A stretch of DNA of 51,945 nt from Akkermansiaceae bacterium (GTDB taxonomy: Bacteria; Verrucomicrobiota; Verrucomicrobiia; Verrucomicrobiales; Akkermansiaceae): contig JAPKCM010000033.1 of the NCBI GenBank assembly GCA_028822935.1, positions 1 through 51,945 of the forward strand. Reading direction: 5' to 3'. The notes beneath the pieces are model-generated. The model was not told the DNA's origin, did not search any database, and saw nothing but the letters and a program-made list of their open reading frames with translations. A program made the translations under genes and the position numbers. Positions 273 to 12,727 of this stretch are shown piece by piece; the stretch's first letter is position 1, and each line of letters starts with the position of its first letter.

Positions 273-2030
273 CTATTTGCGCAAGTTCAGGAGGCGCACA
301 TCCATCACTTGCGACCCCGGGATCTCAAGTGCCCTGAGTGACAGACGTCCTTTTCCCTTCGGCAAATTAATCTTCCCCATTTTCAAGATACGGAAATCTT
401 TCACCAGCGATTCGTTACGCACAAATCGATCTTGGGCGGCGCCAACCAAGGGAGGATCATGGGCGACGGTCACTCGCGCAGTCACTTTTTGATCTCCGAA
501 ACTCAATTCAATCGTGGAGCCAATGTCCCTCTCTGGACAGGTGTAATGGAGTTCAACTTCATACTCCCCGGCCGTCACAACATCTACCTTCCAGAAGATG
601 CGATCCTCCGGCTTTGTCCAGTTGAGGAAAAAGGAACAGTTCGGATGAATTGACGAGCGCTTGATTCCGCCTTCACTATTGCCATCGCGACTTGGCAATT
701 GGTTGTCGATCCCACCAGGATAGCCAACGAGGAAAGGACGAATTGTCATTCGCTTCCCCTTGTTTGGAAGAGTGCTTCTCCACTGAACCATTTCAGCGTT
801 CAATTGATCGACGATTTGAGGGTGCTTCTTCGACAGATCTTTCCGCTGTCCCGGATCAGCAATCATATCGAATAGCTCCCCTTTATCCGAGAGTCGGTAT
901 TGGGAAGTCCTCAATGAAAAGCGATTCGCCCAAGTCGAGAAAATCGTCCGTTCCTTCCACTCCGTTTCCTTCTCCATAAGCAATGGCTTCAAACTCACCC
1001 CGTCAATCGACTTCGGCTCGTCCCGCTGAATCCCCGTGAGAGCGGCAAGCGTCGGAAAAATATCAATCGCGCCGGCAAGCTTCGCCACCCGCTGCCCTTC
1101 GGGAATCTTACCCGGCCAGCGGATAAAAAACGGCACTCGCAATCCCCCTTCATCAGTGGAGCCCTTCTTGCCTCGCATATCTCCGTTCCAGCGATGTCCG
1201 TTAGGACCATTGTCAGAAAAATAAATCACGATGGTATCTTCTTCCAATCCAAGGTCCTCAAGCTGCTTGAGCACTCGCCCGACATTCCAATCGACATTCT
1301 CCACCATTGCCAAAGACGCCCGCTTGTGGGCTTGCTTTTCTCTCTTTGCTTCCCGGTGAACCATCTTCAGATTCTTATCCTTAAACCGGTTCCAAAACTC
1401 ATCAGGCACCTGCATCGGTGAGTGAGGAGTACAATACGGCAAGTAGATCAGAAATGGTTTCTTTGTCTCAGTCTGCTTCTTAATGAAGCGCATCGCCTTT
1501 GTCGTCAGGTCATCCGTGATATAGCCATCACCCTTCACCACTCGCCCATTGTGATCGAGAGCCGGACTGAAATAGTGTCCCCAATGGCCGGAGGTAAATC
1601 CGTAGAATTCGTCGTAACCCCGGGTATTGGGATGATTGGGATACTGCGTTCCATTGTGCCATTTACCAAAGGCGCCAGTTGCGTAGCCCGCCTTTTTGAA
1701 GGCCTCTCCTAAAGTATACTCATCGATATTAAGACGTTCCCTTCCCGTCGAGACTCCGCTCACTCCGGTTTTGGGATGATACCGCCCGGTGAAAAACTCG
1801 GCCCGCGTCGGCGCACAAACCGCACACACGAAGAAGCGATCAAATGAGGCTCCATCCTTGGCCAGAGAATCAATATTCGGAGTATTGATGTCGGTATTTC
1901 CGTGCAACCGCAAATCTCCCCAGCCTTGATCATCGGCGAGAAAGATCACCACATTGGGCGGCTTGCCCGATGCAAAGGAATTAGAGACAGCGAGGCACGC
2001 CACGATACGAATGAAGCATTTCTTAACCAT
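273..2030 (-). CDS. Secreted arylsulfatase, formylglycine type
   Basis: Predicted sulfate-ester hydrolase of the alkaline phosphatase superfamily (sulfatase family S1), 585 aa. Residues 1-20 look like a signal peptide, so it should act outside the cytoplasm. The metal-binding start 'NVVIFLADDQGWGDL' (Asp33, Asp34) and the sulfatase signature 'CAPTR' with Cys72 (the C-x-P-x-R site converted to formylglycine) are both visible. The catalytic core runs to about residue 430, and the last 130 residues resemble a small beta-rich C-terminal domain. It is the last gene of a minus-strand run with the FG-GAP, PVC cytochrome and SGNH genes, 36 bp after the FG-GAP gene. The substrate cannot be read from sequence; sulfated algal polysaccharide is an inference from family and lineage. 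No maturation enzyme gene is in the window. Confidence 0.93.
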   Translation of the reverse strand: MVKKCFIRIVACLAVSNSFASGKPPNVVIFLADDQGWGDLRLHGNTDINTPNIDSLAKDGASFDRFFVCAVCAPTRAEFFTGRYHPKTGVSGVSTGRERLNIDEYTLGEAFKKAGYATGAFGKWHNGTQYPNHPNTRGYDEFYGFTSGHWGHYFSPALDHNGRVVKGDGYITDDLTTKAMRFIKKQTETKKPFLIYLPYCTPHSPMQVPDEFWNRFKDKNLKMVHREAKREKQAHKRASLAMVENVDWNVGRVLKQLEDLGLEEDTIVIYFSDNGPNGHRWNGDMRGKKGSTDEGGLRVPFFIRWPGKIPEGQRVAKLAGAIDIFPTLAALTGIQRDEPKSIDGVSLKPLLMEKETEWKERTIFSTWANRFSLRTSQYRLSDKGELFDMIADPGQRKDLSKKHPQIVDQLNAEMVQWRSTLPNKGKRMTIRPFLVGYPGGIDNQLPSRDGNSEGGIKRSSIHPNCSFFLNWTKPEDRIFWKVDVVTAGEYEVELHYTCPERDIGSTIELSFGDQKVTARVTVAHDPPLVGAAQDRFVRNESLVKDFRILKMGKINLPKGKGRLSLRALEIPGSQVMDVRLLNLRK

Positions 2031-2066
2031 TAGTAAAATAGGCTCAGGATAAAATATCGAGGGATC

Positions 2067-3242
2067 TCAGCGGCTACGAAAAACGTAAACGCCTTTTTTG
2101 TTTCCGATTCCAAGGTCGGTCTTCCCATCACCATTTATATCGGCTGCGGCAAGCTGGGTTCCCGCTCCGGAGTCGGAGTCAATCAAGTGCGGGACGAAGG
2201 AGGCTTTACCATCGTTCCGTTGAAGTTCATACCAATAAAGCACCGCGGCCCCTGCTGAATCGGGGTCGTTTCCATTGTGGGCCCAGTAGCGCTTACCGGT
2301 CGCGAAATCAGTGAGCCCGTCGCCATTAAAATCGCCAACAACCAGCGCATGCGCTTGCGTAAACACCACCCCTCCGACACCCGGTTTCTTCTCTTCAGGA
2401 ATCAACATATGCCTCGTAAAGGACAGGTCATCGTTCTCAAACCAAGCCAATCCCCAGGCATGAGCGGCAATACTTGAGATCACATCATTGTCCCCATCTC
2501 CATCGACATCGTAGACCAGCATCTGCGCCCCACCTTTGACGGAAAAAAGAAAGGGATGAAGAATCCACAGCTCTCCGCTGAGTGGGTTCTTCGGCGCCTC
2601 ATACCAGCCCCCTTTTTCTAAAACATCCACTCGCCCATCTCCATTAAGGTCCCCAAATCCAAGACCGTGGTAATAAGGCGACTTCGTCCGCACCTCCGAA
2701 ATTGCATGAAAGGTCCACGGTTTCTCCGGCGCACTCCAATCAGGTGAAAAGAAACCTACCTTACCTCCCTGCATCGCGATCAGCTCTTCCTTGCCATCGC
2801 CGGTGATATCTCCCAACTCGGGCGACTCATTCCCCATCTTCGTCACCACACGATACTTGGGCCACTCTTCCGATGCCGTCTCCGGCTGAAGATAAAGATC
2901 GAGATGAAAGTTTCCATCGTGGGCCACTTGAAAGAGATCAGCCCTCCCATCGCCATTCATGTCGCGCACCCAGCTCTGAAACGAATTGTGCGCATAGCCT
3001 TTCGCGGGCACCGCCTCACCGGCGCGATAGCGATGGAAGGTTTTAAAATCAGGTCCCTGCCACCACAATGGACCGGCTAAGAGGTCGGTCGCTCCGTCTC
3101 CATTCACATCACCAAAAGAGGCACCCTCGGTATAAACTCCTTTATTCAGCACAAGCCGTTCAATCGGGTCTCCTCCCTCTTGTCGCGCCGCTACTAAAAC
3201 TAAAATGAGCCCCAACGGGCAGAGAAGACTAACTACTTTCAT
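2067..3242 (-). CDS. Secreted FG-GAP/VCBS repeat protein
   Basis: A 391-residue protein with an N-terminal hydrophobic segment (signal peptide, about residues 1-19) followed by repeated Ca-binding-like units such as 'DVNGDGATDLL', 'DMNGDGRADLF', 'DLNGDGRVDVL', 'DVDGDGDNDVI' and 'DINGDGKTDLG'. These are FG-GAP/VCBS repeats, which fold as a beta-propeller like the integrin alpha head. No catalytic motif is seen. It sits between the PVC cytochrome gene (47 bp upstream) and the sulfatase gene (36 bp downstream), so it is probably co-transcribed. A role in carbohydrate or surface binding is inference only. Confidence 0.88.
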   Translation of the reverse strand: MKVVSLLCPLGLILVLVAARQEGGDPIERLVLNKGVYTEGASFGDVNGDGATDLLAGPLWWQGPDFKTFHRYRAGEAVPAKGYAHNSFQSWVRDMNGDGRADLFQVAHDGNFHLDLYLQPETASEEWPKYRVVTKMGNESPELGDITGDGKEELIAMQGGKVGFFSPDWSAPEKPWTFHAISEVRTKSPYYHGLGFGDLNGDGRVDVLEKGGWYEAPKNPLSGELWILHPFLFSVKGGAQMLVYDVDGDGDNDVISSIAAHAWGLAWFENDDLSFTRHMLIPEEKKPGVGGVVFTQAHALVVGDFNGDGLTDFATGKRYWAHNGNDPDSAGAAVLYWYELQRNDGKASFVPHLIDSDSGAGTQLAAADINGDGKTDLGIGNKKGVYVFRSR

Positions 3243-3289
3243 TACTACTAAAATGTCTCAATTTAAAAGAACTCACGAGAAGGAAACCT

Positions 3290-6200
3290 TCATTTCTTTT
3301 CGACCAGCTCAATCAACACCGGAGCGGAACGATAGACGGAATTCACTGACACCGTGAACCGTTCATCATCACCTCCTGCCGGCACTTCAATCGAGGCCGC
3401 GCCCTTCTTAGGAAGAGGAATCTCCTTTTCCCCGTCGAAAAGATGCATCAGCTGCGTTTCGTTGATCTTAAGAATAACTGGACCTTCTCCGTCGCCATCA
3501 AGTCCAAAACGCGCGACTCCATAGCGATTCTTTCCCCGACCCAGAACCTTCGGCATTTCATCGGCAGGCAACGCCCCACTCACCATGCTTCCCATGGGAG
3601 CCCATTGATAGCCCGCGAAACGCTCCGCAAAAATCTTCGGCCCCATATGACCTATCAGATCCCTGGTCCGGGCATGGGGCTGCAACACTTTCCAGTTTCG
3701 CACCAAGGGCCGGGAACTCACCTGAAACTCCCCATCCTTCCCCAACTCGGAAAGAAACCGTACGAGATCGACAAATTCATCTTCACGGAGACTCGCAGTC
3801 AGTCCGGGCGGCATCATCGAGACCGGACTCACGATCTTCGATTTCACATCCGCCTTGGCAATCTTGATGAATCCACCCGCAGAATCGCGCAGCGTGATCT
3901 CCTGATCGCCCTCGCTCACCAATCCACCGGTGTGCGAGTTCCCATCACGAGTCGTCACCAAGGTGGTGTGATACCCTTCCTTGATCTTGTCATTGGGATT
4001 GAGGAGCGAAGTCACCAAATAGTCAATTGGCGCACTTCCTCCAATACTGACCAAATTCGGCCCAACTACCCCTCCACTCACGCCGATCGCGTGACACACC
4101 ATGCACTGAAGTTCCGCCTTCCGGTAAACTCGCTCCCCCTTGCGAGGATCGCCTTCACCCTGAACCCGCGCCACCATCGCTTGCATCTCTGCCGCGCCCA
4201 GTTGCTGCGCCATCGGCTTGAGGTCACCTGCTTTCTCAAATGCCTTGATCAAATCCTGCGGCGGCTTCCCGGTCGTCCCCGCCTTCTGCACACCGAGAAT
4301 GGCAATCTTCCGGGGAAGAGCCTTCCCTTCCAATGCCTTCGCCAAAGCCGAAGAACTCTTCCCATTCCTCAAAAACACATCCAACAGCTGTCCAGCATCA
4401 GAACTCAACTCGCTCTTCTGCAATATCTCTACCGCCCCCTTCGCCGCCCGACTCGGATCAAGATATGCCAACTCCTTAATCGCCATTACCCGCACGTAGC
4501 CCGTCGGACTTTCAGACGCCACTTTCTCAAAGAGCGCGATCACTTCCGCTCCCCCAAAATTCCGCAGCCCTTCCGCGCCTCCACGTCTAGGATACCGCGC
4601 ATTGCTGTCCTGCAAAAACGCCGCCTTCAACGGCTCAAAAGCCGCCCGCTCCTTCCACATCCCCGCCAACACCGCCGCCCGCAAAAAGACCTCTTCCCTG
4701 AGAGACTGCAACGGAACCAAAATCTTCTCCTTCCCCTGATGAGGCTCCAGTTTCCGAATCTGTTTCGCCTCTAACAACGCATCCAAAATTGCGACATCAG
4801 TAGATGACAAAGAAAACAGTCTGCTCAAATCCTGTGCCGATCCCACCTTCGCAATCGTCGAGATCGCACCTGCGCGTTCCTCTCCTTTAAGATTCCCATC
4901 CTCTAGCCCTACGAAAACTCCATCGAGTTTCAAGGGCTTCTCCAAAGCCGCAATCGCGAAAAGCAGATGCTTCAACTTCCCTTTAAAAGTCAACTCACCC
5001 GACTCAAACAAAGGAACCCACTCCCGCTCGTGCTCCCGCACAATCGACCACAAAGCAAAGTCCAAGGTCTCATCCATTGGCTGATCCAGCACCCTCAGAG
5101 CAAAGGGCACCGACGTTTTACCCGGGCGCTGCGCGAGACAACTGACTGCCCAAAGCCGCACCTGAGCATTCTCATCCCCCACCGCCTTCTCAATCATTTG
5201 ATCCACCTTGGGAATTTCGTGATGACGATGATACACCACCCGCAGAGCGGCCGCCCGGAAACGAGGATCACTGGAGTTCGCCAACTTCTCAACCAGCTCC
5301 ACCGGAGTGACATTCAAGGACTGAAAGGTCCACATTGCTTCCACTAATGCCGACTCATTCACTTGCTTCGCGGTCCATGCTCTCAAGGCCGGAAGGACCT
5401 CCTGCCCTCGCTGTCTCAGCTCCTGCTTCGCAAAATCACGTTGAAACCGCTCGGTCGACGTCAATAGCGCCAGCAGAGCCTCCGTTTCCGCGCCCACGAT
5501 CTTCACCTTCTTCACCAAAGGACGGTCCTTAAAAGTCACTCGCCAAATCCGCCCACGCTGATGATCCCGTCGCTTGTCACGGAAGTCCACTTCGCCGTGC
5601 TGAATGATCGGGTTATACCAATCGGCGATGTAAACCGCACCATCAGGTCCCATCTTAACATCGATCGGACGAAAAGCCCGGTGCGCGCTACTCAGAAAAC
5701 CTTCAAGTTGCGTCGACTGATACGAACTCCCCTTCGGCGAAAGCTCATAGCTATTAATACGATGCCCTCGAAAATCCGGTGCAATCATCACTCCACGCAA
5801 ACTCTCAGGCACATGACTCCCCGAGAGAATCTCCAGACCGCACAATTTTGGCTGTCCCGGGTTCAAGCCGCGAATCACTCGCTTGGCTCCTGGCGAAGTC
5901 ACCCCTACTGCTCGTGGAAAGATGAAGTTGATCCCATCACCTCCTGCTCCATCAGTCGCAAATGACTGCCCGTAGTCGTCGAACACGAAGCCCCATGGAT
6001 TCACAAGGCCCTTCGAGAGTACCTCCGCCTGTTGCGTCTCCGGTCGAAAATGCCAAACTCCACCACCCATCAAACGCCGCACCCCGTGAGGAGTTTCAAG
6101 ATGGCTGTGGATGTAGATCGACTGCAAAAAATAAAGCATTCCGTCAGGCCCCTGACTGAAGGTGTGCACCAAATGATGGGTATCCTCGGTTCCAAAACCC

Positions 6201-6649
6201 GATAGCACCACCCGCCGCTCATCCGCAACCAGATCACCATCAGTATCCTTTAAAAAGAGAATCTCGGTCGAGTTCGCGACATAAACGCCCCCATCCATCG
6301 GCAGCACCGCCGTCGGGATGTGAAGATCATCGGCAAAGACGGTTCGCTTGTCAGCAACTCCATCGCCATTCGTATCTTCAAGCACCAGTAACTGATCATT
6401 TTCCTCCGCACCCGGCACGATGTGTGGATACATCCCACTCGACACCAGCCACAGACGTCCTTCCGAATCCCAATTCATCTGAACCGGCTTGGAAATCATG
6501 GGGTCGGAGGCGAAGAGATTGATCTCCATCCCCTCGGGTAGATTAAAGGAAGCTTCCTGCTTCCCGGGATCCGGATCAGGGATATCGCGCAACCCGTTCT
6601 GGGCCTGCAGCGCAATTGTCGTAATAAGAAAAAAGACCGTTAATTTCAT
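3290..6649 (-). CDS. PVC-type heme-binding CxxCH protein (dehydrogenase-like propeller, HEAT repeats, cytochrome c)
   Basis: An 1119-residue secreted protein with a signal peptide at residues 1-17. Residues about 30-370 match the PVC-specific membrane-bound dehydrogenase domain, a glucose/sorbosone-dehydrogenase-like propeller ('LPEGMEINLFASDP', 'KMGPDGAVYIADWYNPII'). Residues about 380-800 are helical HEAT-like repeats. A class I cytochrome c domain follows, with its heme site 'CMVCH' starting at Cys849 and a later 'VSMMPPG' that could supply the axial Met. A further roughly 120-residue C-terminal domain is of unknown type. Its start overlaps the end of the upstream SGNH gene by 4 bp (ATGA), so translation is likely coupled. 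Such proteins are abundant in Verrucomicrobia and Planctomycetes. The electron acceptor and substrate are unknown. Confidence 0.92.
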   Translation of the reverse strand: MKLTVFFLITTIALQAQNGLRDIPDPDPGKQEASFNLPEGMEINLFASDPMISKPVQMNWDSEGRLWLVSSGMYPHIVPGAEENDQLLVLEDTNGDGVADKRTVFADDLHIPTAVLPMDGGVYVANSTEILFLKDTDGDLVADERRVVLSGFGTEDTHHLVHTFSQGPDGMLYFLQSIYIHSHLETPHGVRRLMGGGVWHFRPETQQAEVLSKGLVNPWGFVFDDYGQSFATDGAGGDGINFIFPRAVGVTSPGAKRVIRGLNPGQPKLCGLEILSGSHVPESLRGVMIAPDFRGHRINSYELSPKGSSYQSTQLEGFLSSAHRAFRPIDVKMGPDGAVYIADWYNPIIQHGEVDFRDKRRDHQRGRIWRVTFKDRPLVKKVKIVGAETEALLALLTSTERFQRDFAKQELRQRGQEVLPALRAWTAKQVNESALVEAMWTFQSLNVTPVELVEKLANSSDPRFRAAALRVVYHRHHEIPKVDQMIEKAVGDENAQVRLWAVSCLAQRPGKTSVPFALRVLDQPMDETLDFALWSIVREHEREWVPLFESGELTFKGKLKHLLFAIAALEKPLKLDGVFVGLEDGNLKGEERAGAISTIAKVGSAQDLSRLFSLSSTDVAILDALLEAKQIRKLEPHQGKEKILVPLQSLREEVFLRAAVLAGMWKERAAFEPLKAAFLQDSNARYPRRGGAEGLRNFGGAEVIALFEKVASESPTGYVRVMAIKELAYLDPSRAAKGAVEILQKSELSSDAGQLLDVFLRNGKSSSALAKALEGKALPRKIAILGVQKAGTTGKPPQDLIKAFEKAGDLKPMAQQLGAAEMQAMVARVQGEGDPRKGERVYRKAELQCMVCHAIGVSGGVVGPNLVSIGGSAPIDYLVTSLLNPNDKIKEGYHTTLVTTRDGNSHTGGLVSEGDQEITLRDSAGGFIKIAKADVKSKIVSPVSMMPPGLTASLREDEFVDLVRFLSELGKDGEFQVSSRPLVRNWKVLQPHARTRDLIGHMGPKIFAERFAGYQWAPMGSMVSGALPADEMPKVLGRGKNRYGVARFGLDGDGEGPVILKINETQLMHLFDGEKEIPLPKKGAASIEVPAGGDDERFTVSVNSVYRSAPVLIELVEKK

Positions 6650-7542
6650 TGCGCCACCTCCATCACTCTACTTTTGAGTTCCATAATCTCTGCTTCGCGT
6701 GACACGATGATCGCATCAAACTCGTCCAACTCCTTGGCATTCTGCCCCTGCTCGTGTTTTCGAAAAAGCCTTAAGTAAGTCTCATTGGACGGTCGCCATT
6801 GCTGAAAGAAGAGCTTGTTCTTTTCCATGATTTTCTCCCTCAAGCCATCGCGCTGTTCGGACTTCAGTGAAACCGCTTTCAGCCCCATCGCTTCCACCAG
6901 CTTCGGTGCCACCACCGCATATCCCTTTTCTCCAAAGTGAAGCCCATTCTCCGTAAGCCCCTCACTACTCCCACTCATCGCCTCAAAGAGATCCGCAAAG
7001 CGTAGCCTCCTCTTCGCCGCCAACTCACGAATTGCATTCCGATAAATTTTAAGCCGTCCGTTCTGCTCCGCCATTTTAGGCATTGGTGCCGGAAGCGTCT
7101 CGGCAGGCGGTGGCGACAGCAGAATAACTTCACGTGCGCCCGTCGCCCCTTGAATCATGTCGAGAAGAAGGCCATATCCCGCGATAAACTCGTCTTTCTT
7201 TTTCTCCCCCTCAAACGCCGCCACGGCGCCATAACAAACCATCACCACGGTCGGCTTGATCGCTGTGAGATCATTCTTAAGACGATCAAAGCCCTCCTTC
7301 GGCGGCCCAAAATAGCTCCGCGCCGTCCCAAAGACGGTATCCCCACTCCATCCAAGATTCCGAAAACGCACCTCGGTCACACCCGCAGCCAAAGCCAGCT
7401 CCGTCTCGAGATACCCGAACTGCTGGGCCCTCTCGACAAAAGTATTCCCTATAAACACGACGGTATCCCCTTCCCGAAACGAAAATTCTTCCGCCCTCGC
7501 TAAACACGAAAGCAGCAGCGCAAAACACAAAAGTTGAAGCAT
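6646..7542 (-). CDS. Secreted SGNH/GDSL-like protein with altered catalytic blocks
   Basis: SGNH-hydrolase-fold protein, 298 aa from the ATG at 7542. That start gives a clean signal peptide (MLQLLCFALLLSCLARA), whereas the longer frame from 7593 adds 17 polar residues. Fold blocks are recognisable: 'VVFIGNTFVERAQ' (block I), 'NLGWSGDTVFG' (block II), 'MVCYGAVAAFEG' (block III) and 'NGLHFGEKGY' (block V). The usual Ser of GDS reads Thr, the block III Asn is absent, and the Asp of D-x-x-H reads Asn, so normal esterase activity is doubtful. It is the first gene of the four-gene secreted operon and overlaps the PVC heme protein gene by 4 bp. Confidence 0.82.
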   Translation of the reverse strand: MLQLLCFALLLSCLARAEEFSFREGDTVVFIGNTFVERAQQFGYLETELALAAGVTEVRFRNLGWSGDTVFGTARSYFGPPKEGFDRLKNDLTAIKPTVVMVCYGAVAAFEGEKKKDEFIAGYGLLLDMIQGATGAREVILLSPPPAETLPAPMPKMAEQNGRLKIYRNAIRELAAKRRLRFADLFEAMSGSSEGLTENGLHFGEKGYAVVAPKLVEAMGLKAVSLKSEQRDGLREKIMEKNKLFFQQWRPSNETYLRLFRKHEQGQNAKELDEFDAIIVSREAEIMELKSRVMEVAQ

Positions 7543-7611
7543 GAATATATCAATACGTCTCGAGCCGACTATTCCAATCGAGAATTTTCGCATTTTTTTA
7601 GCTGACGATGT

Positions 7612-8648: not shown

Positions 8649-8783
8649 GATCTTAACCTTACGATTTATTCACATCTCCATCGTTGAATTTTTAGGAATT
8701 TTCGTAATCACGAAGAAAGTGTTAGATTATCCTGTTAGAACTGTCTCGATTGCATTCACCGACAATTGTGTTTAGTCACTCCC

Positions 8784-9920
8784 ATGGCCAATTTTGAAGA
8801 GGCAATTACCCGGCGTAAAACAGGGTCTTTGAAATGGGACCGCCGTCCCGATCTCGATCCTTTGTGGGTCGCTGATATGGACTTCACCTCTCCCCCTGCA
8901 GTGATCGAAGCCCTTCGCAAAAGAGTCGACCATGGCGTCTTTGGCTACGGTGTTCCACACGCTTCACTGATCGAGACTCTCCTGGACTACTTGCAACGTC
9001 GTATCGGCGTGCAAGTTTCAGAGGAGGCAATCGTCCACCTCGGTGGACTGGTCCCGGCCCTCTCGCTAGGCGCACGCGCCTTCGGCAGCGCAGGAGACGC
9101 AGTCATGACCTGCACCCCGGTCTATCCACCCTTCCTCGGAATTCATCGTGACGCATCAATGGAACTTCAAACAGTCGACCATTGCCTCATCAACGGCTCT
9201 TGGTCCTTCGACTGGGACGCCATGGAAAAAACGGTGACTCCAAAGACGAAAATCTTCATCCTGAGTAATCCCGCGAATCCACTAGGCCGTGCCTTTTCAT
9301 CCGCGGAGATCACCCAGCTTGCGGAATTCTGTGAGCGTCATGACCTCATTCTCCTCTCCGATGAAATCCACTGCGATCTCATTTTCGATGAAGAAAATAC
9401 GCCTCATTTTTCGGCCCTCAATCTCCCCGACGAACTCCGCAAGCGCACCATCACCCTTCTCGCTCCCAGCAAGACTTACAACATTGCCGGACTAGGCTAC
9501 GCCTTCGCAGTGATCCCCGATGAAAAAGTACGCAAGCGCTTCAATGCGGCCAAGGGTCACACCCTCGCCGAAATCAATTGCCTCGCCTACTATGCGGCCG
9601 AAGCTGCTTACAAAGACGGCGAACCATGGAGGCAAGAGCTCCTTGCTTACCTCCGCAAAAATCGTGATCTACTCACTTCAACACTCCGGAATGCTCTTCC
9701 CGGAATCGCCATCCCGGACATCGAAGCCACCTACTTGGCATGGATCGACTGTCGTCCCTTGGAAATAGAAAACCCGACCAAAAAGGCCGAAGACGCTGGA
9801 CTCTATCTCTCCGACGGAGCATTTTTTGGGCATAGAGACTGCGTCCGCATCAACTTCGGCACTCAAACTGATCGACTCGAGAATGCCCTCGAGACCTTGA
9901 TCGCGGCGGTCCGTTCTTGA
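8784..9920 (+). CDS. MalY/PatB-type PLP aminotransferase (probable cystathionine beta-lyase)
   Basis: Fold-type I PLP enzyme, 378 aa. 'RKTGSLKWD' and 'LWVADMDFTSPPAVIEAL' near the N-terminus are typical of MalY/PatB C-S beta-lyases. 'LSNPANPLGRAFS' and 'LLSDEIHCDLIF' hold the usual cofactor-binding Asn and Asp, and the internal-aldimine lysine is Lys230 in 'APSKTYNIAGLG'. The family cleaves cystathionine or cysteine with release of pyruvate, ammonia and a thiol. The start was placed at the ATG at 8784; a TTG 18 bases upstream is in frame but lacks support. The gene is followed after 32 bp by a secreted protein gene. Other aminotransferase activities cannot be excluded. Confidence 0.9.
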   Translation: MANFEEAITRRKTGSLKWDRRPDLDPLWVADMDFTSPPAVIEALRKRVDHGVFGYGVPHASLIETLLDYLQRRIGVQVSEEAIVHLGGLVPALSLGARAFGSAGDAVMTCTPVYPPFLGIHRDASMELQTVDHCLINGSWSFDWDAMEKTVTPKTKIFILSNPANPLGRAFSSAEITQLAEFCERHDLILLSDEIHCDLIFDEENTPHFSALNLPDELRKRTITLLAPSKTYNIAGLGYAFAVIPDEKVRKRFNAAKGHTLAEINCLAYYAAEAAYKDGEPWRQELLAYLRKNRDLLTSTLRNALPGIAIPDIEATYLAWIDCRPLEIENPTKKAEDAGLYLSDGAFFGHRDCVRINFGTQTDRLENALETLIAAVRS

Positions 9921-9952: not shown

Positions 9953-10624
9953 ATGAAACTTTGGGCTTTCCTCTTACTCTTCGCCTTTGGTCTTCCTGCC
10001 TCAGCAAAGAAACACGTCATCCTGTGTGGCGGCCCGGCGCTCCGCAAATGGGAGAATCTTCGCGTCGAACGTGATCGCCATGATCGTTGGTGGGCCAACT
10101 TTATCCGCGCTTCCACCATGCGCATGGACGAACTCCACCGTGCTTACGGAAAAGATGCCTCCATCACTTGGATCGTTTATCGTCCGGGATACGTTCTCCG
10201 TGGTCAGGAAGACAGCCAGCCTTACACCATCTGGATCGAGAAACAGGCCACAAAGCGCAAAGTAAAGCTCATCTGGATTAGCACGGGAGACCAGGCCATC
10301 GCCGCGATCAACCGACAGCGCGACATCATCAATTTTGATTTCTTCGGCCACTCAAACAAGCACTGCTTCCTTCTCGATTACGGAAGTGCCGTCATGGCTG
10401 TCAGCCAAGCATGGATTCATGAACGCGATCTCCGCAAAGTGCGCCGGGGTGCCTTTAATAAATTTGCCACCTGCCAGAGCTATGGCTGTCACACTGGCGA
10501 AAGCATGAGCCAGGTCTGGAAATCCCAGCTGGGCATCAAGCTCATCGGTGCCCGTGGAAAAACCGACTACGCCGCTCTCACCTTTGGTAAACTCCCCACC
10601 GTATCCGACATCTGGATCCGCTAA
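9953..10624 (+). CDS. Secreted protein with a caspase/CHAT-like His-Cys pattern
   Basis: No confident family assignment. The 223-residue product starts with a clear signal peptide (MKLWAFLLLFAFGLPASA), which decides the ATG at 9953 over a TTG overlapping the preceding stop. The mature part begins 'KKHVILCGGP', then an Arg/Asp-rich helix, a strand 'ITWIVYRPGY', then 'NFDFFGHSNKHC' with His133 and 'FNKFATCQSYGCHTGESM' with Cys174. A hydrophobic strand ending in G-H, and then another ending in x-C with small residues, is the arrangement of clan CD peptidases (caspase, gingipain, CHAT). This is pattern recognition and is not proven. It precedes bioB by 21 bp. Confidence 0.75.
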   Translation: MKLWAFLLLFAFGLPASAKKHVILCGGPALRKWENLRVERDRHDRWWANFIRASTMRMDELHRAYGKDASITWIVYRPGYVLRGQEDSQPYTIWIEKQATKRKVKLIWISTGDQAIAAINRQRDIINFDFFGHSNKHCFLLDYGSAVMAVSQAWIHERDLRKVRRGAFNKFATCQSYGCHTGESMSQVWKSQLGIKLIGARGKTDYAALTFGKLPTVSDIWIR

Positions 10625-10645: not shown

Positions 10646-11641
10646 ATGATCTACTCAGACCTAGAAGCCCTCTATCAGCTCCCCCTTTTCGAACTCATCC
10701 AGCGCGCGCGCTCCGTTCACGAAGAGAATTGGCCCGCCGCCGAAGTGCAGCTTTGCACCCTCCTCTCCATTAAAACCGGTGGCTGCTCGGAAGACTGCTC
10801 CTACTGTGCCCAGTCGGCCCGCTATAAAAGCGGTGTTGATGCCGAGCGCTTGATGGAGAAATGCGATATCATGAAGCGCGCCGAAGCGGCACGCGATAGC
10901 GGCTCAACTCGTTTCTGCATGGGAGCAGCCTGGCGCGGAGTCCGCTCAGGGACCAAACGTTTCGACCAAGTTCTCGATATCATCAACGACGTTTCAGAGC
11001 TCGGGATGGAAGTCTGCGTCACTCTCGGTGAAGTCGGCCCGGAAGAAGCTGTCGCTCTCAAAGAAGCCGGCGTCACAGCCTACAATCACAATGTCGACAC
11101 CTCACCGGAATACTATCCGAACGTCGTCACCACCCACACTTTTCAAGATCGCCTCAACACCATCCGTAACGTCCAGGACGCCGGAATGGCCGTATGCTGT
11201 GGCGGCATTCTCGGACTCGGCGAAGACACTTCGGATCGGCTCCGCATGCTCGAAGTCGTCTCCGAGTTTAACCCGCAACCCGAATCCGTCCCCATCAACT
11301 CGCTCATGCCGATGCCCGGCACGCCAATGGCCGAAAATAAAGGGGTCGATGTTTTTGAACTCGTTCGGATCATCGCAATCGCACGGATATCCATGCCCAA
11401 AGCCAAGGTGCGTCTTTCGGCCGGACGCACCAACCTCAGCGAAGAAGGTCAGACGCTCTGTTTCTTCGCCGGCGCCAATTCTATCTTCTACGGAGACAAG
11501 CTTCTCACCGCCAAAAATCCAGCGGTGGAAAAAGATCTCGCTCTCATCGATAAGCTCGGGATGAGTCCCCAGCAACCCAACCGCAAGCAGACCCCACCAG
11601 ACTCCGATGATACCCGACCCAGAGAGCCACAAACGGCCTGA
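10646..11641 (+). CDS. bioB: Biotin synthase
   Basis: Radical SAM enzyme that inserts sulfur into dethiobiotin, the last step of biotin synthesis, 331 aa. The radical SAM cluster motif 'GGCSEDCSYCAQS' contributes Cys47, Cys51 and Cys54. Downstream BioB signatures are present: 'CMGAAWRGVRSG', 'YNHNVDTSPEYY', 'CCGGILGLGE' and 'VRLSAGRTNLS', the last including the unusual Arg ligand region of the [2Fe-2S] cluster. No other biotin genes are nearby, so this is an isolated bioB. Its 3' end overlaps the next gene by 35 bp in another frame, suggesting translational coupling. Confidence 0.97.
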   Translation: MIYSDLEALYQLPLFELIQRARSVHEENWPAAEVQLCTLLSIKTGGCSEDCSYCAQSARYKSGVDAERLMEKCDIMKRAEAARDSGSTRFCMGAAWRGVRSGTKRFDQVLDIINDVSELGMEVCVTLGEVGPEEAVALKEAGVTAYNHNVDTSPEYYPNVVTTHTFQDRLNTIRNVQDAGMAVCCGGILGLGEDTSDRLRMLEVVSEFNPQPESVPINSLMPMPGTPMAENKGVDVFELVRIIAIARISMPKAKVRLSAGRTNLSEEGQTLCFFAGANSIFYGDKLLTAKNPAVEKDLALIDKLGMSPQQPNRKQTPPDSDDTRPREPQTA

Positions 11642-12092
11642 AATTGATCTACGAATCGAGGTCTCGATATCCGAACAGACAGTAAAGCTATCCAAGGAAG
11701 GCACTGTCATTTTCAAAGCTCCAGTATCCACTGCAGCCAACGGCATCGGCTTTAAAGAAGGGTCGAACAAAACACCCACCGGACAATTCATCGTCCGCGA
11801 GAAAATTGGAGAGGGTGCTCCTCTCTTTACCAGTTTCAAAGGCCGCCTCCCCCGCCAAGTTTGGCAAGGCAAGTCCGGCGATGACGCCATTCTCACTCGA
11901 ATTCTCTGGCTCGCTGGGCTTGCAGAAGAGAATAAGAATACCTACCTGCGCTACATCTACTTCCATGGGACCCATGCCGAAAACTTGATCGGCCAACCGG
12001 CTTCCTGTGGCTGCATTCGCTTGCGAAACAATGATATGTTGACTCTTTTCGACCTCACTCCGATTTTCACCTCTGTCACCATTTCCCTATGA
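11607..12092 (+). CDS. L,D-transpeptidase (YkuD) family protein
   Basis: A 161-residue YkuD-domain protein. 'STAANGIGFKEGSNKTPTGQF' is the conserved fold start, 'YIYFHGTHAENLIGQP' carries the active-site His120, and 'ASCGCIRLRN' holds the nucleophile Cys136. The family normally reads S-H-G-C here; this protein has Cys134 in place of the His. Known members make 3-3 peptidoglycan cross-links or attach proteins in the periplasm, yet no signal peptide or membrane segment is visible, so location and activity are uncertain. The start overlaps bioB by 35 bp and the stop overlaps serB by 4 bp (ATGA), which points to a bioB-ldt-serB operon. Confidence 0.87.
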   Translation: MIPDPESHKRPEIDLRIEVSISEQTVKLSKEGTVIFKAPVSTAANGIGFKEGSNKTPTGQFIVREKIGEGAPLFTSFKGRLPRQVWQGKSGDDAILTRILWLAGLAEENKNTYLRYIYFHGTHAENLIGQPASCGCIRLRNNDMLTLFDLTPIFTSVTISL

Positions 12093-12727
12093 AGAAAATA
12101 ATCGCCTTCGATTGCGACTCCACCCTATCTGCCATCGAAGGCGTCGACGAGCTCGCACGCTTTGCCGGAGACGATGTCTTTAAGCAGGTTGAGGACCTCA
12201 CCAGTCAAGCAATGAATGGTGAAATCGCCGTCGAAGCGGTGTTTGGCAAGAGATTGGAACTCATTCAACCCACTCAACAACAGTGTGAACAGGTCGGGCA
12301 AATGTACATCGATCACATCGAGCCCACTGCCAAAGCTACCATCGCCACGCTTCAGCAAAATGGCTGGGAGTGCATCATCATCTCAGGAGGATTTACAGCC
12401 TGCATCCAGCCCCTTGCCAAGGAGCTTGGCATTAACCGAGTCGAGGCCGTTCCACTCTATTTTACAGAAAATGGCAGCTATTCGGGCTTTGATTCAGATT
12501 ATCCCACCACCAGAAATGGAGGGAAGCCGGAGATCATTTCTCAAATTAAAGGAGAACAGAACCCTGATGCCATCGTAATGATTGGAGATGGCGTGAGCGA
12601 CTTAGAGACCCAATCTATTGTAGATACGTTCATTGGATACCTTGGCTACACTGCTAGAGAGAAAGTCCAGGAGGAAGCCAAGAATACCACATATCTCCTT
12701 TCGAAACTCTTAGATATCCTAATATAG
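12089..12727 (+). CDS. serB: Phosphoserine phosphatase-like HAD hydrolase
   Basis: HAD-IB family phosphatase, 212 aa. Motif I 'IAFDCDSTLSAIEGVDELA' has nucleophile Asp8 and general acid Asp10, and the following Glu matches the SerB substrate-binding pattern. Motif II lies in 'CIIISGGFT' and motif IV in 'VMIGDGVSDLE'. The expected reaction is hydrolysis of O-phosphoserine to serine, the last step of serine synthesis, in the cytoplasm. Some related proteins act on other small phosphates, so the exact substrate is inferred. The ATG overlaps the L,D-transpeptidase stop codon, so translation is probably coupled. Confidence 0.88.
   Translation: MKKIIAFDCDSTLSAIEGVDELARFAGDDVFKQVEDLTSQAMNGEIAVEAVFGKRLELIQPTQQQCEQVGQMYIDHIEPTAKATIATLQQNGWECIIISGGFTACIQPLAKELGINRVEAVPLYFTENGSYSGFDSDYPTTRNGGKPEIISQIKGEQNPDAIVMIGDGVSDLETQSIVDTFIGYLGYTAREKVQEEAKNTTYLLSKLLDILI

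What the first reader, a model, noticed from the sequence alone, without database searches (positions are those of the whole stretch)
9953..10624. Possible new secreted clan CD-like peptidase family
A signal peptide is followed by a strand-helix layout with a hydrophobic strand ending Gly-His133 and another ending Thr-Cys174, as in caspase/CHAT/gingipain folds. The rest of the sequence is unlike any family I recognise.
Basis: inference. Interest (0 to 1): 0.55.

Follow-up and report, generated by a model that had tools for sequence, protein, structure and literature searches.

The report
Exported caspase-fold peptidase of Verrucomicrobia
This gene encodes a small exported protein that is predicted to have the fold of caspases and legumain; it is found in about half of the sampled genomes of its bacterial class, nearly always with a second uncharacterised exported protein, and relatives of it sit at the ends of likely bacterial weapon proteins.

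Summary
The nucleophile was misplaced: His133 is kept in 150 of 150 rows with a letter there, but Cys174 in only 108 of 151; the invariant cysteine is Cys179, 151 of 151. No Pfam, NCBIfam, PHROGs or PADLOC model matches it. A weak sequence bridge leads to DUF4347, the domain reported for the T6SS effector Tce1. The gene is in 72 of 141 genomes of its class; a second unannotated exported or lipid-anchored protein is in 73 of them, 71 shared. The second gene lies directly downstream in 30 of 71, in 12 families, while other neighbours are scrambled. Related domains end three RHS-type proteins, each followed by an immunity-like gene. Best reading: a new clan CD-like family of exported cysteine peptidases with a dedicated partner. 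Activity, substrate and partner role are untested.

The parts
9953..10624 (+). Clan CD-like exported putative cysteine peptidase, 223 aa
   Evidence: ORF; matches in 137 of 144 relatives; models and fold comparison
9953..10006 (+). Predicted signal peptide, residues 1-18, by eye; no lipobox seen
   Evidence: Sequence; a hydrophobic N-terminal segment in 119 of 143 scanned members by a simple scan, against 0 of 68 BioB and 2 of 27 aminotransferase controls
10349..10351 (+). His133 codon, candidate catalytic base
   Evidence: H in 150 of 150 distinct sequences with a letter there; after strand 125-131
10472..10474 (+).
   Evidence: C in 108 of 151 distinct sequences
10487..10489 (+). Cys179 codon, candidate nucleophile in S-[YW]-G-C-H-T-G
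   Evidence: C in 151 of 151 distinct sequences; aligned by hhalign to the Cys of DUF4347 YGC
10646..11641 (+). bioB (biotin synthase), next gene downstream, a frequent neighbour in this clade
   Evidence: TIGR00433 above cut-off at this place; directly downstream in 55 of 90 loci with a called neighbour
8766..9920 (+). PatB/MalY-like aminotransferase upstream (name from recall, not scanned); directly upstream in 13 of 88 loci
   Evidence: ORF; neighbour counts

Best explanation
The gene encodes an exported cysteine peptidase with a minimal caspase/legumain-type domain. After removal of the signal peptide, the roughly 205-residue domain works in the cell envelope with His133 as base and Cys179 as nucleophile. 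Shown here by computation: the fold match, conservation of the two residues, the signal-like N-terminus, broad presence, mostly as one copy, in one large clade, and an ancient link to a second exported or lipid-anchored protein (the partner), encoded in this genome at G000:C57:81813-82106. Inferred: that it cleaves peptides or proteins, and that the partner regulates it or is processed by it. A dedicated inhibitor or regulator is slightly favoured over a substrate, because the related domains on RHS proteins are followed by what look like membrane-anchored or exported immunity genes.
For: Fold: legumain Z 11.9 (4n6o: rmsd 3.7, 167 aligned), Tce1 11.2 (rmsd 3.0, 143), SAVED-CHAT 10.7, metacaspase 8.9, against 9.5 for the best Rossmann enzyme (5z2l). 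Second model: legumain 11.6, Tce1 10.9, CHAT 9.9, gingipain RgpB 9.9, metacaspase 9.6, against 8.5 for 5z2l. Viral library: 7 of its top 9 rows are named caspase, caspase-like or peptidase C14. Residues. Bridge: a family profile (one of whose 31 rows, L127, is itself RHS-borne) finds the RHS domain L162 at 1.5e-8, and L162 hits PF14252 DUF4347 at 1.2e-6, above its cut-off, over the same stretch. Direct hhalign with DUF4347, without L127, scores 24.0 over 85 columns and puts His133 and Cys179 on its His and Cys; the best of 30 neighbour-ORF controls scores 20.0 over 7 columns. Partner: both genes in 71 of 141 genomes, neither in 67, one alone in 3; adjacent in 30 of 71. Neighbour control: no other neighbour family is shared by more than 2 taxon families. 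RHS copies. Purifying selection between two 0.9 Mb genomes: dN 0.105, dS 0.83.
Against: No activity data. Foldseek itself lists no clan CD chain in its top 50 against the PDB, and metacaspase (8.9) ranks below one Rossmann enzyme. The distance between His133 and Cys179 in the model could not be measured. The hhalign probability is only 6%, and the same test on DUF4347 against C25, which I had taken as a positive control, scored 16.1, inside the controls, so the test is weak at this distance. On an rpoB tree the shared presence of the two genes is mostly one clade: 4 and 3 changes, 2 of 4 independent pairs agree and 2 do not differ, not significant. The two genes can part: G451 has the peptidase alone, G028 and G551 the partner alone, and G173 has an intact peptidase with a broken partner gene.
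Confidence: 0.7

Rival explanations
1. A pseudo-enzyme or a non-proteolytic hydrolase on a caspase-like scaffold, for example a binding protein or an amidase, in which Cys179 and His133 are kept for structure.
For: No activity known. His is followed by Ser in the stand-alone family (S134 in 147 of 151 rows), not by Gly as in the motif recalled for clan CD. Other residues (W73, R83, S176) are about as invariant as the dyad.
Against: Both dyad residues are kept in every distinct sequence that has a letter there. RHS-borne relatives L127, L161 and L162 keep the His and the Cys too, and each is followed by an immunity-like ORF.
Confidence: 0.17
2. A Rossmann-like protein unrelated to caspases (dehydrogenase-like or nucleotide-binding) whose match to clan CD is general alpha/beta similarity.
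For: Foldseek's top rows are mostly dehydrogenases and other Rossmann proteins; such chains follow at Z 7 to 9.5.
Against: Legumains, Tce1 and SAVED-CHAT lead both second-look lists, and viral caspases lead the viral list. The sequence bridge to DUF4347 aligns the His and Cys. Cofactor motifs of dehydrogenases were not looked for.
Confidence: 0.06
3. It takes part in biotin metabolism, for example releasing biotin from biotinylated peptides, since bioB lies next to it.
For: bioB is directly downstream in 55 of 90 loci, and also in f2, f3, f10, f18 and f107, f109.
Against: G173, G194 and G273 carry the gene but no bioB above cut-off; G028, G238 and G264 have bioB but no gene. In the other clade the downstream gene is the partner, not bioB. 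The product looks exported.
Confidence: 0.05

Closest known systems
Legumain / asparaginyl endopeptidase (peptidase family C13)
   Same: Best structural match in both second-look lists (4n6o: Z 11.9 and 11.6, rmsd 3.7 and 4.3, 167 and 174 residues); His before Cys (recalled for legumain).
   Different: No Pfam peptidase family for the window protein; 13 and 17% identity to 4n6o; no room in 223 aa for legumain's C-terminal prodomain (recalled).
DUF4347 (PF14252), with the T6SS effector Tce1/PA0256
   Same: Tce1 structure 9qpe has the lowest rmsd of the clan CD-like rows (Z 11.2, 3.0 A over 143). PA0256 is reported to contain a DUF4347 domain (PMC8262886, passage), with a proposed His186/Cys240 dyad (PMC13323088, passages). 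hhalign pairs the His and Cys.
   Different: No Pfam match for the window protein. DUF4347 matches over the cut-off in this phylum sit in open frames of 291 to 16,206 codons; here it is a small stand-alone protein. DUF4347 itself was found in 16 of 115 genomes of the phylum, not in G000 and in 0 of 14 control genomes.
CHAT / SAVED-CHAT, gingipain C25, metacaspase C14
   Same: Fold: Z 10.7 and 9.9 (CHAT), 9.9 (RgpB, second list), 8.9 and 9.6 (metacaspase).
   Different: No Pfam match for the window protein; no further domain in the 223 aa ORF.
Tox-Caspase domains of polymorphic toxins (PMC3482391, passages read)
   Same: Three related domains sit directly after an RHS core, as C-terminal toxin domains do, and are followed by immunity-like ORFs.
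   Different: The window protein is stand-alone with its own signal peptide. Verrucomicrobia are not in that paper's Tox-Caspase row.

Membership tests
Clan CD (caspase-like superfamily) | Caspase-like alpha/beta/alpha fold | tested here: met
   Top rows of both second-look lists are legumain, Tce1 and SAVED-CHAT; metacaspase and (second list) gingipain lower. Foldseek alone did not show it in its top 50.
Clan CD (caspase-like superfamily) | Conserved His then Cys, each after a core strand | tested here: met
   His133 150/150, Cys179 151/151; strands 125-131 and 168-176
Clan CD (caspase-like superfamily) | His followed by Gly (motif recalled) | tested here: not met
   Ser134 in 147 of 151 rows; two of the three RHS-borne relatives (L127, L161) have His-Gly, L162 has His-Ser
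Clan CD (caspase-like superfamily) | His and Cys adjacent in a pocket; thiol-dependent peptidase activity | not testable with these tools
   No coordinates were given out and no assay is possible
Peptidase_C13, C14, C25, CHAT (Pfam) | Profile match above cut-off | tested here: not met
   No family for the window protein up to E 10; of the 31 members of A2 one, the RHS domain L127, hits PF01364 at 0.11, below cut-off
DUF4347 (PF14252) | Profile match above cut-off | tested here: not met
   Window protein: none. Distant RHS relative L162: 1.2e-6, above cut-off
DUF4347 (PF14252) | Remote homology with matching His and Cys | tested here: inconclusive
   hhalign score 24.0 against at most 20.0 in 30 controls, probability 6%; DUF4347 against C25 scored only 16.1; transitive link through L162
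Polymorphic toxin C-terminal domain | Follows an RHS core | tested here: not met
   Not for the window ORF. Met for L161 and L127 (TIGR03696 above cut-off) and sub-threshold for L162

The most novel reading that the evidence does not exclude
A two-protein envelope system of one large clade of Verrucomicrobiia: an exported, minimal caspase/legumain-type processing or transpeptidating enzyme and a dedicated, often lipid-anchored partner that controls it. The same catalytic domain has been recruited onto RHS toxins together with membrane-anchored or exported immunity proteins, so one fold serves both in envelope housekeeping and as a weapon.
Probability: 0.3. Interest if true: 0.75.

Novelty: new variant of a known kind. 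Interest (0 to 1): 0.56.

Why it matters
About half of the sampled genomes of a bacterial class keep this gene (72 of 141), two 0.9 Mb genomes included, yet no curated model that I searched describes it or its partner. If it is a peptidase, it would be a new family of caspase-like enzymes in the cell envelope, with a ready test of what such enzymes do outside cell death and virulence. The partner and the RHS relatives give two routes to finding substrates and inhibitors.

Tried and rejected
Cys174 as nucleophile: rejected on conservation. Biotin pathway role: not supported as general. Phage or plasmid origin: no match to the window protein in 50,697 phage or 72,556 plasmid records, and no confirmed relative among 39 pattern matches in viral contigs. 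Direct sequence match to solved structures: none meaningful (best E 0.051 to a designed protein). Direct link to C25: hhalign aligns His133 but scores 18.9, within the controls. Families absent from the second-look lists were not taken as excluded. The first rpoB tree had 8 rows in a long false clade that I took for wrong-frame translations; it was replaced. A window versus L031 substitution-rate comparison and a first look at the G173 partner failed in a script error; the second was done, the first was not repeated. Essentiality: in the V. spinosum screen (PMC12283558, passages only) I saw no gene that I could match, and its supplements could not be opened. Literature searches (listings, with passages of four papers read) showed no described family of this kind; this covers only the held open-access library and those terms.

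Rows dropped before counts: 26 of 117 loci had the gene hidden by a longer overlapping ORF and were left out, leaving 91, of which 90 had a called downstream neighbour and 88 a called upstream one. In one search, 3 of 26 loci had no called peptidase ORF. In one search, L127 and the second L126 copy were left out of the family set. One search counts distinct sequences after removing duplicates. In one search the split peptidase of G547 was entered by its tail on C46, beside the partner; without it the adjacency count is 29 of 71 and the number of families unchanged. The partner counts are from simple ORF picks, some start sites are guesses. Some of the 30 hhalign control clusters may be antisense ORFs.

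Full report
Observation. The ORF 9953-10624 (+) encodes 223 aa. It occurs once in its own genome and has matches in 137 of 144 relatives (113 of 115 of the more complete, less contaminated ones); one search found 112 relatives by pattern and kept 80 named loci. Neither Pfam nor NCBIfam matches it up to E 10, nor PHROGs or PADLOC up to E 1. The nearest named relative (L031, 83% identity) is an Akkermansiaceae metagenome-assembled genome, so the window is most likely from Verrucomicrobiales (inference).

Residues. Among 151 distinct sequences, Cys179 is present in 151, His133 in 150 with one gap, Ser176 in 151, Arg83 in 150 with one gap, and Cys174 in 108; the other 43 have A, V, I, S, M, N or T there. 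In the 81 sequences of the near set Cys174 is also invariant, which is why it looks catalytic at short range; among 132 rows it is lacking in 12, mostly from further out.

Fold. AlphaFold2 with 81 sequences gave mean pLDDT 90.7. A second model, of L110 without its signal peptide and with 78 sequences, gave 93.8; the two alignments share nearly all their rows. In the second-look structural comparison the first list is led by legumains (Z 11.9), Tce1 (11.2) and SAVED-CHAT (10.7), then BdcA (5z2l, a Rossmann enzyme by recall) at 9.5 and metacaspase 9 at 8.9. The second list has legumains 11.6, Tce1 10.9, SAVED-CHAT 9.9, gingipain RgpB 9.9, metacaspase 4 9.6 and RgpB again at 8.6, before BdcA at 8.5. 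Against viral models, 7 of the top 9 rows are named caspase, caspase-like or peptidase C14, at E 0.011 to 0.035. Foldseek alone against the PDB put mostly Rossmann enzymes first and no clan CD chain in its top 50, with no match at E 0.001 or better, so the evidence is good but not overwhelming. The tools give no coordinates, so the His-Cys distance was not measured.

Sequence bridge. The family profile A2, one of whose 31 rows (L127) is itself RHS-borne, finds a domain in G292 (L162) at 1.5e-8. That protein hits DUF4347 (PF14252) at 1.2e-6, above its cut-off, over the same stretch. A profile-profile alignment, made without L127, with DUF4347 domains collected scores 24.0 over 85 columns and pairs His133 and Cys179 with the DUF4347 SHG and YGC residues. 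Thirty neighbour-ORF control alignments score at most 20.0, over short stretches. The probability is only 6%, and DUF4347 against C25 scored just 16.1, so the test has little power. Independently, the Tce1 structure among the top fold matches is of PA0256, reported to contain DUF4347 (PMC8262886, one passage) and proposed to be a cysteine protease with a His186/Cys240 dyad; in the same paper the active-site mutant of Tce2 lost toxicity to yeast, while Tce1 itself was not toxic there (PMC13323088, passages).

Export. A simple hydrophobicity scan finds an N-terminal segment in 119 of 143 family members, against 0 of 68 BioB and 2 of 27 aminotransferase controls. Some misses are probably mis-picked starts.

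Distribution and partner. In 141 genomes of the class the gene is in 72. Neighbours in other families pointed to a second unannotated protein. Its profile finds it in 73 of the same 141 genomes, 71 of them shared; the exceptions are G451 (peptidase only) and G028 and G551 (partner only). In 288 genomes of the phylum the partner is in 52, all within the class. It lies directly downstream on the same strand in 30 of 71 genomes, in 12 families, and elsewhere in 41, the window's genome included. A neighbour control over 23 loci shows the partner directly downstream in 20, from 11 families, while no other neighbour family is shared by more than two taxon families. Of the three others, f107 and f109 have bioB there (66-67% identity to the window's). 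In the separate-type genomes 14 of 17 distinct partner sequences pass a lipobox scan; the f8 and f12 sequences do not, and L178 does. Eight partner sequences match no Pfam model, and five no NCBIfam model, above a cut-off. In 24 partner sequences ten positions are invariant: G, R, W, G, P, R, D, Y, G and Y.

Control for ancestry. On an rpoB tree of 90 of the 141 genomes the peptidase needs 4 changes, the partner 3 and adjacency 1; of 4 independent pairs 2 agree and 2 do not differ, so shared presence alone is weak evidence. The one genome nested among those lacking both, G506, has both genes, adjacent. The conserved adjacency amid scrambled neighbours is the stronger argument.

RHS copies. Related domains follow an RHS core directly in L161 and L127 (TIGR03696 above cut-off) and in L162 (below it). 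Each is followed by a short ORF with a hydrophobic N-terminus, of 157, 153 and 170 aa, starting 14 to 25 bases after the domain's stop. In L162 another RHS-like stretch follows. A fragment of the domain in L163 has such an ORF too, overlapping its end as picked; those of L161 and L163 are homologous (5e-14). This is how toxin-immunity pairs look (recalled), and a membrane-anchored or exported immunity protein would fit an enzyme that acts outside the cytoplasm (inference).

Two 0.9 Mb genomes, G173 and G194, keep the peptidase under purifying selection (dN 0.105, dS 0.83). In G173 the partner gene is split between reading frames.

Mechanism. Most likely an envelope cysteine peptidase using His133 and Cys179 (0.7 for the whole statement). 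Whether the partner is inhibitor, cofactor or substrate is open; the parallel with RHS immunity genes tilts towards regulator. G173, with an intact peptidase and a broken partner, speaks against an inhibitor that is always needed.

Noticed in passing
G000:C57:81813-82106 (L265:4647-5360:+): The window genome's copy of the partner: a lipoprotein-like protein of no family that I could find, on another contig than the peptidase gene.
   Followed up: partly
L161:4947-6032:-, L127:1084-2376:-, L162:2788-3933:-, L163:4809-5219:+: RHS-type proteins, or a fragment, ending in a related domain with an immunity-like ORF next to it; L162 has a further RHS-like stretch downstream.
   Followed up: partly
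L126:4959-5576:-: A tandem second copy beside the normal one that lacks the block with W-E, H-D and W-W-x-N-F in the alignment; probably decaying or diverged.
   Followed up: no
L172, L173, L174, L178: Match coordinates of peptidase and partner overlap slightly (gap -6 in 7 of 30 adjacent pairs), as in translationally coupled genes.
   Followed up: no
window 11607-12727: An L,D-transpeptidase-like ORF (11607-12092) overlaps the end of bioB and is followed by a phosphoserine phosphatase-like ORF (12089-12727); names recalled, not scanned. They may share a transcript with the peptidase gene.
   Followed up: no
window 273-7593 (-): A block of secreted sulfatase-like, FG-GAP-like, large c-type-cytochrome-like and SGNH-like ORFs (names recalled, not scanned).
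   Followed up: no
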